Below, piece after piece: positions 24,898 through 27,413 of a stretch of DNA of 64,000 nucleotides. The position numbers and the translations under genes are program-made. Below the pieces are notes generated by a model that saw nothing but the letters and a program-made list of their open reading frames with translations, had not been told where the DNA came from and ran no database searches. Every line of letters starts with the position of its first letter. Positions within the stretch are counted from its first letter, which is position 1. Source of the DNA: Haloprofundus salinisoli (lineage in GTDB: Archaea; Halobacteriota; Halobacteria; Halobacteriales; Haloferacaceae); assembly GCF_020097815.1 (NCBI RefSeq), contig NZ_CP083663.1:1550001-1614000 (forward strand), read 5' to 3'.

Positions 24898-25194
24898 CTA
24901 CTGCGCTTCCCGATACGGCCACTCGGGGTCGCGTTGATCGCGCGCCGTCGGTTCTCGCAGGCTTTCGGGGCGCTGTCCGCGTCCCGCCCAGCCGAACCGT
25001 CTGACGTTCTGCCACGCGTCGACGAGCGCGTCGGGGTTCTCGCCGCGAGTCACGGTCACCGAGTCGAACTGCTCGGGGTCGTCGGTCCACGCGCAGATTT
25101 CACAGGCGTCGTACGACCCGCGTTCGCCGCGGCTCAGCGTCCGAAACCCGCAGCAGGGACAGAACCCTCGCAGCCGAGAGTGCCGTCGAGCCAT
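24898..25194 (-). CDS. CPCC-type cysteine-rich protein
   Basis: A 98-residue soluble protein with the CPCC-family pattern: FCPCCGFRTL at about residues 11-20, then the second Cys pair in YDACEICAW (about 28-36). The four cysteines can bind one zinc ion. The rest is an acidic-to-basic tail with DPEW. The family is widespread in bacteria and has no established role. It has no obvious partners. The upstream intergenic DNA (25195-25270) is strikingly A/T-rich. Confidence 0.75.
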   Translation of the reverse strand: MARRHSRLRGFCPCCGFRTLSRGERGSYDACEICAWTDDPEQFDSVTVTRGENPDALVDAWQNVRRFGWAGRGQRPESLREPTARDQRDPEWPYREAQ

Positions 25195-25333: not shown

Positions 25334-26293
25334 TCACCCCTCGCCGAAGGTGGTCGAAAACAACTCGAAGTCGTACTCGACGCCGGTGAGCTCCTCGGAG
25401 ACCTGCCAGAGTCGCCCCGCGGTCACCTCGTCGTACGACCGCTCGCTCGACTCCTGGACCGCGGGATGTCCGCGGATGTTCATGAGGCCACCCGGGCCGA
25501 CGTAGCCTCCGCCGGGGACGTCTTCTGTCGCCGCGTACAGCATCGGCAACGCGCCCCAGGCGGCGGACTGCGCGAGGACGGCGTTGGCGACGCCCATCGC
25601 CGCCTTCCGCACCGTCGACCCCTCCGCTTCCGGTTGACGGTACTGGAGGTTCGTCGCCGCGTAGCCGGGGTGGCAGCCGATGCTTCGGACGTGCTCGACT
25701 CCGGCGTCGTCGAGTCGCCGCTGGAGTTCGTACGCGAAGAGGAGGTTCGCCAGTTTGCTCTGGGCGTACGCGCCCCACTCGTCGTACGACTCCTCGCTCT
25801 GGATGTCGTCGAACTCGATCTCGCCGGCCTCGTGGACGCCGCTGCTCTGGGTGACGACGCGCGCGTCCTCGCCGGTCATCTGGTCGAGGAGCAACCCTGT
25901 GAGCGCGAAGTGACCGAGGTGGTTGACGCCGAACTGCGTCTCGAAGCCGTCTTCGGTCTCGCTTCGCGGAATCGCCATCACGCCCGCGTTGTTGCAGAGC
26001 ACGTCGAGTCGGTCGTGGACGTCCGAAAACGTCTCGGCAAACGTCCGCACCGAGCTCAGGTCGGCCAAGTCGAGTTTCTGGAGTTCGAGCGCACCGCTCG
26101 GCCGGTTCGCAGCGAGTTCGACCCGGGCCTCTTCGCCGCGTTTCATATCTCGACACGCCATGACGACGTGCGCGCCGCTGTGGGCGAACGCCCGCGTCGC
26201 GTGATAGCCGAGACCGCTGTTCGCGCCGGTGACGACCACCGTCTGTCCGTCGAGTCGAGGCATGTCCGCGGCCGTCCAGTCGCCTCTCGCCAT
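25334..26293 (-). CDS. Short-chain dehydrogenase/reductase (retinol dehydrogenase-like)
   Basis: A 319-residue classical-type SDR. The nucleotide loop TGANSGLG is at residues 22-29, NNAG at about 101-104, the catalytic Ser near 150, and Tyr176/Lys180 in YAQSK. The layout resembles the extended retinol dehydrogenase/WWOX-like subgroup that has about 50 extra C-terminal residues. The arginine-containing ACRDMKRGEE after the second strand suggests NADP(H). The substrate is unknown. An in-frame Met at codon 11 could also start it. It sits directly after the IlvC-like gene on the same strand with a 60-base gap. Confidence 0.85.
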   Translation of the reverse strand: MARGDWTAADMPRLDGQTVVVTGANSGLGYHATRAFAHSGAHVVMACRDMKRGEEARVELAANRPSGALELQKLDLADLSSVRTFAETFSDVHDRLDVLCNNAGVMAIPRSETEDGFETQFGVNHLGHFALTGLLLDQMTGEDARVVTQSSGVHEAGEIEFDDIQSEESYDEWGAYAQSKLANLLFAYELQRRLDDAGVEHVRSIGCHPGYAATNLQYRQPEAEGSTVRKAAMGVANAVLAQSAAWGALPMLYAATEDVPGGGYVGPGGLMNIRGHPAVQESSERSYDEVTAGRLWQVSEELTGVEYDFELFSTTFGEG

Positions 26294-26354: not shown

Positions 26355-27413
26355 TCAGTCGGTGGACTCGTCGGCTTCGGCGGCGTCGCTCGCGTCCGCG
26401 TCGCCCGCCTCGTCGAGCTCGTCGAGGCCGAACTCGTCGATGGTCGTCTGCTCGGCTTCGATCATCTCGTGACCGCGGTACTTCTTGTAGAGGCGCTTGA
26501 GCTTCGGGTAGCCCGCCTGCTGTTGCAGCGTCCACTCCGTCGCGAACGAACCGTCGTCGATCTCGCCCATCTTCTCGCGCATGAACTCCCGGAGCGGTTC
26601 GCGGTCGAACTCGTCGATGCCCGCTAACTGACCGTACTGGCTCGTCATCGAGTGCAGCGGCATCTGCTCGACTATCCCCATCGTCGCCGCCTTCCGGAAG
26701 ATGTGGCTCAGTTCCTGCGAGAGATACTGCTCCATCAGGATGGCCTCGGGGGGCGCGCCCGCCTCGCGTTCGACTTCCCACTTGGCGATGAGCGCGTTGG
26801 CGATGACCGGAATCAGACCTTGCTCGGTCAAGAGGTCGAGTTTCGTCTCCGTCTCGAAGTCACCCTCGATGACGCCCGAGCGGGTCGCGCCGATGCCGTG
26901 GGCGATGGCCAGCGCCACGTCGAGCGCCTCGCCAGAGGCGTCCCGTTCGACGGCGAGGAAGGCGGGCGCGCCGCGGCCGTCGACGTACAGTTCGCGGACC
27001 ATCGCGCCGACCATCCGTGGCGCGACCATCACCACGTCGACGTCGTCGGGCGGCGTGATGTACTCGTAGGTGACGTTGTAGCCGGAGGCGAAGTTGAGCA
27101 CGTCGCCCGCTTCGAGATTCGGTTCGATGTGCTCCTCGTAGACGGCGGGGGCGACCTCGTCGGGGACGAGCAGGAAGACGACGCTCGCAATGGAGACGGC
27201 CTCTCCGGTCTCGTAGACGGGGAACCCGTCCTCCTGGGCTTCCTCCCAGGAGGCGTCTTTGCGGTTGCCGACGACGATGTCCTCGACGCCCGCGTCGCGG
27301 AGGTTCTTCGCCTGGGCCCGCCCCTGGTTGCCGTAGCCGATGATAGCGACGGTGCGCCCGGTCAGCGCGTCGAGGTCGGCGTCCGATTCGTCGTAGACGG
27401 TGGAGTCGGCCAT
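26355..27413 (-). CDS. Ketol-acid reductoisomerase-like protein with altered active site
   Basis: A 352-residue protein clearly homologous to class I KARI (IlvC): the GYGNQGRAQAKNLRDAG dinucleotide loop (Gly26, Gly28, Gly31), LLVPDEV, VFLLV strands, HGIGATRSGVIEGDF and the metal pair Asp193/Glu197 in LDLLTEQ. However, two catalytic positions differ. The His of the usual HGFNIHF is Ser110 (FASGYNVTYE), and the Lys of APKGPGH is Arg133 (APRMVGA). It may therefore perform a related NAD(P)-dependent reaction rather than branched-chain amino-acid synthesis. No other ilv or leu genes are nearby. The acidic, Ala/Asp-rich tail is typical. Confidence 0.75.
   Translation of the reverse strand: MADSTVYDESDADLDALTGRTVAIIGYGNQGRAQAKNLRDAGVEDIVVGNRKDASWEEAQEDGFPVYETGEAVSIASVVFLLVPDEVAPAVYEEHIEPNLEAGDVLNFASGYNVTYEYITPPDDVDVVMVAPRMVGAMVRELYVDGRGAPAFLAVERDASGEALDVALAIAHGIGATRSGVIEGDFETETKLDLLTEQGLIPVIANALIAKWEVEREAGAPPEAILMEQYLSQELSHIFRKAATMGIVEQMPLHSMTSQYGQLAGIDEFDREPLREFMREKMGEIDDGSFATEWTLQQQAGYPKLKRLYKKYRGHEMIEAEQTTIDEFGLDELDEAGDADASDAAEADESTD

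What the first reader, a model, noticed from the sequence alone, without database searches (positions are those of the whole stretch)
26355..27413. KARI-like enzyme lacking catalytic His and Lys
The protein keeps the dinucleotide loop and the metal pair Asp193/Glu197 of ketol-acid reductoisomerase. But the conserved His is Ser110 and the conserved Lys is Arg133 (APRMVGA in place of APKGPGH). It stands alone, away from ilv genes. It is likely a paralogue with a different, undescribed NAD(P)-dependent reaction.
Basis: partly seen in the sequence, partly recalled or inferred. Interest (0 to 1): 0.6.

Follow-up and report, generated by a model that had tools for sequence, protein, structure and literature searches.

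The report
Catabolic-looking offshoot of valine-pathway enzyme KARI
This salt-loving archaeon carries, besides its normal valine/isoleucine enzyme KARI, a second KARI-shaped enzyme from a large, overlooked family in bacteria and archaea whose active site and gene neighbours suggest it breaks down sugar-like acids, so database labels that call it a valine-synthesis enzyme are probably wrong.

Summary
The gene (26355-27413, minus strand, 352 aa) is an intact class I KARI homologue with Ser110 for His, Arg133 for Lys, and both N-terminal metal ligands (D193, E197). It also keeps the C-terminal ligands (E228, E234, S255), the Glu pair being split by a two-residue insertion. The genome has a separate canonical ilvC (His and Lys present) in an ilvB-ilvN-ilvC-leuC-leuD-leuB cluster.

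The protein is no oddity. It belongs to a fully supported clade (106 sequences, many bacterial and archaeal phyla) marked by Arg (106/106), the insertion, Gln250, His254, Ser258 and Asp53. His-to-Ser is only a sub-trait (82/106). One member already has solved structures: Sso-KARI of Saccharolobus solfataricus, published as an NADH/NADPH-bispecific KARI. So loss of KARI chemistry is not shown.

Members lie beside sugar-acid catabolic genes: GntP permease/GntR regulator, D-threonate-type kinase plus PdxA, nickel-pincer isomerase, aldonate dehydratases, GarL/HpaI-type aldolase, apiosidase-like glycosidases. Ilv genes are almost never near.

Best reading: an NAD-linked catabolic KARI acting on polyhydroxy 2-hydroxy acids; substrate unknown. 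In the window's own genus it stands alone, and this genome lacks the kinase and isomerase, so the inference is by family.

The parts
26355..27413 (-). KARI-like gene (352 aa), Arg-type KARI subfamily
   Evidence: intact ORF, KARI_N + KARI_C, inside the 106-member clade
27255..27266 (-). Codons N50-D53 of the cofactor loop (VGNRKD); Asp53 is 105/106 in the clade, Ser/Gly in canonical KARIs; NAD(H)-type loop by analogy to BurG Asn48/Asp51
   Evidence: analogy from PMC9359912
27084..27086 (-). Codon of Ser110, in place of canonical His
27015..27017 (-). Codon of Arg133, in place of canonical Lys; Arg in 106/106 of the clade
26823..26837 (-). Codons D193-E197, first metal-ligand pair, conserved
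26712..26732 (-). Codons E228-E234, second metal-ligand pair, with the two-residue insertion (includes Ser232) unique to the clade
26637..26666 (-). Codons Q250-Q259 (QMPLHSMTSQ): Gln250, His254, Ser255, Ser258; canonical has Met, Val/Ile, Ser, Ala
25334..26293 (-). SDR-family oxidoreductase gene 62 bp downstream on the same strand, kept next to the KARI-like gene in all five genomes of the genus; possible co-transcription, function not assigned
   Evidence: inference

Best explanation
The gene encodes a member of a distinct KARI subfamily (here 'Arg-type KARI') that uses the KARI scaffold (Rossmann domain, knotted helical domain, two Mg2+ held by D193/E197/E228/E234) as an NAD(H)-linked catabolic enzyme for polyhydroxy 2-hydroxy acids (aldonic or branched sugar acids of about 4-5 carbons), not for acetolactate in valine/isoleucine synthesis. 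Proposed mechanism: the two Mg2+ bind the carboxylate and the 2-alkoxide; hydride passes from C2 to NAD+ (loop N50/D53 would reject NADP+); the resulting 2-keto-3-hydroxy acid is released or rearranged by migration of a C3 substituent (KARI chemistry in reverse). Arg133 would take over the role of Lys, and His254, Ser258 and Gln250 would make polar what is a Val/Ile-, Ala- and Met-lined position set in canonical KARI, fitting CH2OH or OH rather than CH3. Shown: paralogy, clade, fixed signature, fold, gene context of relatives. Inferred: cofactor, direction, substrate class, whether an isomerisation occurs.
For: Clade of 106 apart from 46 canonical KARIs, SH-aLRT 100. Signature: Arg133, Ser232 insertion, Gln250, His254 and Ser255 in 106/106; Ser258 in 103/106; Asp53 in 105/106; metal ligands 105-106/106; canonical set has Lys, no insertion, Met, Val/Ile, Ala, Ser/Gly. 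BurG, a KARI-family enzyme shown to need NAD+ and to oxidise the 2-OH of a 2,3-dihydroxy acid, excludes NADP+ with an Asn and an Asp three residues apart, as N50/D53 here (PMC9359912). Neighbours in several lineages: GntR/FCD + KARI-like + GntP permease in gut Firmicutes/Spirochaete loci (GntP directly downstream in ten); DtnK-type kinase + PdxA + KARI-like + cyclase + MFS in series in Alicyclobacillus; DtnK + PdxA + NPN-isomerase group 22 + GntP-like + KARI-like in Halalkalicoccus; MR/MLE dehydratases, 2,5-dioxovalerate dehydrogenase and 2-hydroxyacid dehydrogenases in haloarchaea; GarL/HpaI-type aldolase + glyoxylate reductase in Thermoproteota; apiosidase-like glycosidases in Caldilineaceae and an archaeon. 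IlvB/IlvN near only 1 of 80 named loci, L103, which also holds a canonical ilvC on the same contig. KARI-like presence co-occurs with the DtnK-type kinase in 99 related genomes (8/13 vs 11/86, p=3e-4; without the window's genus 8/8 vs 11/86, p=7e-7; phylogeny not corrected).
Against: Sso-KARI, inside the clade, was published as a KARI with NADH/NADPH bispecificity (title only seen; PDB titles), so acetolactate may be turned over. Neighbourhoods are heterogeneous, so there may be several substrates. The window's genus lacks the catabolic neighbours, and this genome has no group-22 NPN isomerase and no DtnK-type kinase at the thresholds used. No assay; direction and substrate are inferred; the pocket assignment rests on alignment, not on a ligand-bound structure.
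Confidence: 0.58

Rival explanations
1. A second true KARI isozyme: it still converts 2-acetolactate or 2-aceto-2-hydroxybutyrate, Arg and Ser replacing Lys and His without loss, and differs only in cofactor (NADH) and regulation.
For: Sso-KARI with the same Ser/Arg is deposited and published as KARI with Mg, NADH or NADPH and the inhibitor CPD. All metal ligands are kept. TIGR00465 ilvC cut-off is passed, 270 vs 226 bits.
Against: A canonical ilvC is already in the ilv-leu cluster. Almost no clade member lies near ilv/leu genes, while many lie near sugar-acid genes. Polar replacements at three positions near the substrate Ser are fixed or nearly so. It fails the stricter PRK05479 equivalog cut-off, 289 vs 336.
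Confidence: 0.17
2. A reductase (or dehydrogenase) only: Lys-to-Arg removes the isomerase half, leaving NAD(H)-dependent 2-ketoacid/2-hydroxyacid interconversion, for example hydroxypyruvate, 2-keto-aldonate or ketopantoate reduction.
For: KARI-fold BurG reduces hydroxypyruvate with NADH (PMC9359912). Corynebacterial KARI doubles as ketopantoate reductase (PMC4353338). In Thermoproteota loci L184/L186/L187 it directly follows a glyoxylate-reductase-type gene and faces an HpaI/GarL-type aldolase gene.
Against: A dedicated 2-hydroxyacid dehydrogenase is often present beside it, which would be redundant; the whole metal site and Ser255 are kept. It overlaps with the best explanation and cannot be separated from it by sequence.
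Confidence: 0.18
3. A decaying or moonlighting duplicate without enzymatic role in this genus.
For: It stands alone, and partner genes are missing from this genome.
Against: dN/dS 0.07-0.12 within the genus, present in 5/5 species sampled, all catalytic ligands kept.
Confidence: 0.03

Closest known systems
Sso-KARI, 'putative ketol-acid reductoisomerase 2' of Saccharolobus solfataricus (PDB 6jcv, 6jcz, 6jd1, 6jd2)
   Same: Best sequence and Foldseek hit (45-47% identity); same Ser for His, Arg for Lys, Asn/Asp cofactor loop, E-x5-E insertion and HSxTSQYG; sits inside the clade
   Different: Published as a BCAA KARI; the genomic neighbours of its near relative in G624 (L178) are aromatic-catabolism-like (HpaB, a ring-cleavage-type protein), unlike the haloarchaeal ones
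Canonical class I KARI (IlvC), including this genome's own copy
   Same: Fold, both domains, two-metal site, conserved Ser
   Different: Lys/His catalytic pair replaced, two-residue insertion in the second metal motif, polar residues at three conserved nonpolar positions, NAD-type loop, not in ilv operons
BurG, NAD+-dependent KARI-family cyclopropanol synthase (PMC9359912)
   Same: KARI fold turned to NAD+-dependent oxidation of a 2,3-dihydroxy acid; Asn and Asp three residues apart in the cofactor loop; high structural similarity
   Different: A polyketide-warhead pathway enzyme; its sequence was deliberately not fetched, so its place in the tree is untested
D-apionate oxidoisomerase ApnO (Carter et al. 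2018, recalled, not in the library)
   Same: From memory: catalyses hydroxymethyl migration with oxidation, formally a reverse KARI step on the bis-hydroxymethyl analogue of the KARI product
   Different: From memory a different protein family; no sequence available here, so homology was not tested

Membership tests
Canonical class I KARI (IlvC, EC 1.1.1.86 type) | KARI_N Rossmann and KARI_C knotted domains | tested here: met
Canonical class I KARI (IlvC, EC 1.1.1.86 type) | Two-metal ligands Asp/Glu + Glu/Glu and substrate Ser | tested here: met
   D193, E197, E228, E234, S255
Canonical class I KARI (IlvC, EC 1.1.1.86 type) | Catalytic Lys (APK) and His (FAHGFNIH) | tested here: not met
   Arg133 and Ser110; canonical set 46/46 Lys and His
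Canonical class I KARI (IlvC, EC 1.1.1.86 type) | E-x3-E spacing of the second metal pair | tested here: not met
   E228-x5-E234; residue S232 aligns with a gap in 46/46 canonical
Canonical class I KARI (IlvC, EC 1.1.1.86 type) | NCBIfam ilvC equivalog cut-offs | tested here: inconclusive
   TIGR00465 passed (270 vs 226), PRK05479 failed (289 vs 336)
Canonical class I KARI (IlvC, EC 1.1.1.86 type) | Linkage to ilv/leu genes | tested here: not met
   Canonical copy is linked; this gene and 79/80 named relatives have no IlvB/IlvN nearby
Canonical class I KARI (IlvC, EC 1.1.1.86 type) | Turnover of 2-acetolactate | not testable with these tools
   Needs assay; published claim for Sso-KARI known by title and PDB titles only
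Arg-type KARI clade (contains Sso-KARI 6jcv) | Falls inside the supported clade | tested here: met
   SH-aLRT 100 for the split
Arg-type KARI clade (contains Sso-KARI 6jcv) | R133, S232 insertion, Q250, H254, D53 | tested here: met
   All five present
Arg-type KARI clade (contains Sso-KARI 6jcv) | Sugar-acid catabolic neighbourhood (frequent, not defining) | tested here: not met
   True of many relatives but not of the window's genus
BurG-type cyclopropanol synthase | NAD+-type loop, Asn and Asp three residues apart | tested here: met
   N50/D53 here; BurG Asn48/Asp51 from PMC9359912
BurG-type cyclopropanol synthase | Clade membership and gonydiol gene cluster | not tested
D-apionate oxidoisomerase ApnO | Homology to ApnO and apionate turnover | not testable with these tools
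   No ApnO sequence or paper available; only contextual hints (apiosidase-like neighbours)

The most novel reading that the evidence does not exclude
The Arg-type KARI clade is a large, unrecognised family of catabolic oxidoisomerases that run KARI's carbon-migration chemistry backwards on branched or linear polyhydroxy acids (for example apionate, whose two CH2OH groups correspond to the two CH3 groups of dihydroxyisovalerate), in several lineages feeding a DtnK/PdxA-type route to triose phosphate; Sso-KARI, taken as a BCAA enzyme, would be one of them.
Probability: 0.2. Interest if true: 0.78.

Novelty: new variant of a known kind. Interest (0 to 1): 0.6.

Why it matters
KARI is a textbook anabolic enzyme and a drug and biofuel target. 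If a whole clade does sugar-acid catabolism, hundreds of genes annotated ilvC are misnamed, Sso-KARI would need reassessing as a BCAA model, and a new enzymatic carbon-skeleton rearrangement may be open to discovery in gut bacteria, Spirochaetes, haloarchaea and Asgard archaea. The fixed signature (APRMxG, E-x5-E, HSxTSQYG) makes the family easy to recognise and test.

Tried and rejected
Displaced His or Lys: none in the alignment or nearby sequence. Pseudogene or wrong frame: rejected (intact ORF, dN/dS 0.07-0.12; the long antisense ORF is a high-GC artefact). Only ilvC in the genome: rejected. His loss as the defining trait: rejected, 24/106 of the clade keep His and S/H needs 3 changes on the tree. 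Pathway intact elsewhere in this genome: group-22 NPN isomerase and DtnK-type kinase searched and not found. Group-22 NPN isomerase co-occurrence across all 99 genomes was not significant (p=0.11). Papers on ApnO, on 'Sso-KARI' by name, and on KARI in sugar-acid pathways gave nothing usable; the JACS 2019 paper on Sso-KARI is not in the library. Mutagenesis literature on the KARI Lys/His was found only as a citation.

Full report
OBSERVATION. The stretch 26355-27413 on the minus strand is one intact ORF of 352 codons, ATG to TGA. Pfam finds KARI_N (3.7e-64) and KARI_C (1.2e-23). Ser110 and Arg133 stand where all 46 canonical KARIs of my set have His and Lys. D193 and E197 are kept, and so are the C-terminal ligands E228, E234 and S255; the two Glu are separated by five residues instead of three because of a two-residue insertion. 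The gene is under purifying selection within its genus (dN/dS 0.07-0.12).

PARALOGUE. The genome holds one other KARI (39% identity). It has FAHGFNIH and APKSPGH and lies in an ilvB-ilvN-ilvC-leuC-leuD-leuB cluster. In 99 genomes of the same GTDB family nearly all have a canonical copy and 13 also have the KARI-like gene: all 5 of the window's genus, 2 of 2 of a second genus, scattered elsewhere.

FAMILY. In a sample of the phylum of a bathyarchaeal member 18 of 250 genomes have it. In a tree of 106 KARI-like and 46 canonical sequences the two groups are the two sides of one branch, SH-aLRT 100; canonical bacterial and class II sequences are under-sampled there. The signature is nearly fixed: Arg133, Ser232 (insertion), Gln250, His254 and Ser255 106/106; Ser258 103/106; Asp53 105/106; metal ligands 105-106/106. 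The His is lost in 82 and kept in 24, with 3 changes on the tree. So the Lys-to-Arg change and the insertion, not the His loss, define the group. Contig L103 carries a canonical ilvC and a KARI-like gene about 3 kb apart, each with its own signature.

ALREADY IN THE PDB. The closest solved protein is 'putative ketol-acid reductoisomerase 2' of S. solfataricus (6jcv, 17 entries), with FASGYNV, APRMVG and HSTTSQYG like the window protein; it falls inside the clade. It was published as a dodecameric KARI with NADH/NADPH bispecificity (title and PDB titles; I could not read the paper, and its reported activity is from memory). An AlphaFold2 model of the window protein (mean pLDDT 94) matches Sso-KARI best in Foldseek and the rest of class I KARI and BurG almost equally well. 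So the substitutions are compatible with a functional KARI-type site.

COFACTOR AND POCKET (inference). Canonical class I KARIs hold the 2'-phosphate of NADP with Arg and Ser in the beta2-alphaB loop (PMC8615647). The clade has Asn or Ser at 50 and Asp at 53. In BurG, a KARI-family enzyme shown to need NAD+ and to oxidise the 2-OH of a 2,3-dihydroxy acid, Asn48 and Asp51 (same spacing) exclude that phosphate (PMC9359912). Near the substrate Ser, canonical Met, Val/Ile and Ala become Gln250, His254 and Ser258. I read this as a switch from a methyl/ethyl-binding to a hydroxylated-substrate pocket; that these positions touch the substrate comes from general knowledge of KARI structures, not from a ligand complex examined here.

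GENE CONTEXT. Outside the window's genus and its sister the gene sits in sugar-acid catabolic neighbourhoods. Haloarchaea: 2,5-dioxovalerate dehydrogenase (over cut-off), MR/MLE-type dehydratases, DtnK-type kinase, PdxA, PF04199 cyclase, nickel-pincer isomerase group 22 (over cut-off), amidase, 2-hydroxyacid dehydrogenases. Alicyclobacillus L073: DtnK-type kinase, PdxA, KARI-like, cyclase, MFS-cluster gene in series on one strand. Halalkalicoccus L056: DtnK-type kinase, PdxA, group-22 isomerase, a GntP-like permease, KARI-like. Gut Firmicutes and Spirochaetes: GntR/FCD regulator upstream in many and GntP permease directly downstream in ten loci. Compostibacillus: PfkB sugar kinase, KARI-like, alpha-ketoglutarate-semialdehyde-type dehydrogenase, MR/MLE dehydratase. 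Thermoproteota L184/L186/L187: glyoxylate-reductase-type gene, KARI-like, HpaI/GarL-type aldolase. Caldilineaceae L090/L091 and archaeal L188: apiosidase-like glycosidases. IlvB/IlvN are near only one of 80 named loci. Across 99 related genomes the KARI-like gene and a DtnK-type kinase co-occur (8/13 vs 11/86, p=3e-4; without the window's genus 8/8 vs 11/86, p=7e-7); this is not corrected for phylogeny. Counter-evidence: this genome has neither the group-22 isomerase nor the DtnK-type kinase, and the window's genus has none of these catabolic neighbours; an SDR oxidoreductase gene lies 62 bp downstream.

MECHANISM. I propose an NAD(H)-linked, Mg-dependent catabolic enzyme: 2-alkoxide bound between the metals, hydride to NAD+, then release or carbon migration. 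Apionate, HOOC-CHOH-C(OH)(CH2OH)2, is the bis-hydroxymethyl analogue of the KARI product, and oxidation with CH2OH migration is known as the ApnO reaction (memory; not in the library). The apiosidase-like neighbours make this a concrete but minority hypothesis; the kinase/PdxA neighbours point rather to C4 acids. Whether isomerisation occurs cannot be told from sequence.

VERDICT. A real, widespread, distinct KARI subfamily, likely misannotated as BCAA KARI; the interpretation of a different reaction is plausible and strengthened, the claim of lost catalytic residues is overstated, and one member is already structurally known.

Noticed in passing
L099:6667-8190, L111, L115, L122 (Anaerolineae/Thermoflexales): KARI-like ORFs of about 500 aa; in L099 a C-terminal SCP2 (sterol carrier) domain follows the KARI domains, a fusion I do not know from elsewhere.
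   Followed up: partly
L058, L062, L064 (Clostridiales), upstream of the KARI-like gene: An unassigned glycyl radical enzyme (PFL2 family, below every specific equivalog cut-off), then a 308-aa gene likely to be its activase (inferred from position and length), then the KARI-like gene, in line on one strand.
   Followed up: partly
L094:3091-5571 (uncultured Clostridiales), also L081: 827-aa ORF joining a xylose-isomerase-like TIM barrel to an acyl-CoA-ligase domain, followed by pyruvate:ferredoxin oxidoreductase, upstream of the KARI-like gene.
   Followed up: no
L178 (G624, Saccharolobus-like): The KARI-like gene overlaps a 257-aa ORF without Pfam match and lies in an HpaB / ring-cleavage-type cluster, unlike any other context seen.
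   Followed up: no
window 24898-25194 minus: 98-aa cysteine-rich (CPCC-type) protein two genes downstream of the KARI-like gene, kept in all five genomes of the genus.
   Followed up: no
G058:C1:51672-52677: A broken group-22 nickel-pincer isomerase copy (stops inside) beside several intact copies in the same genome.
   Followed up: no
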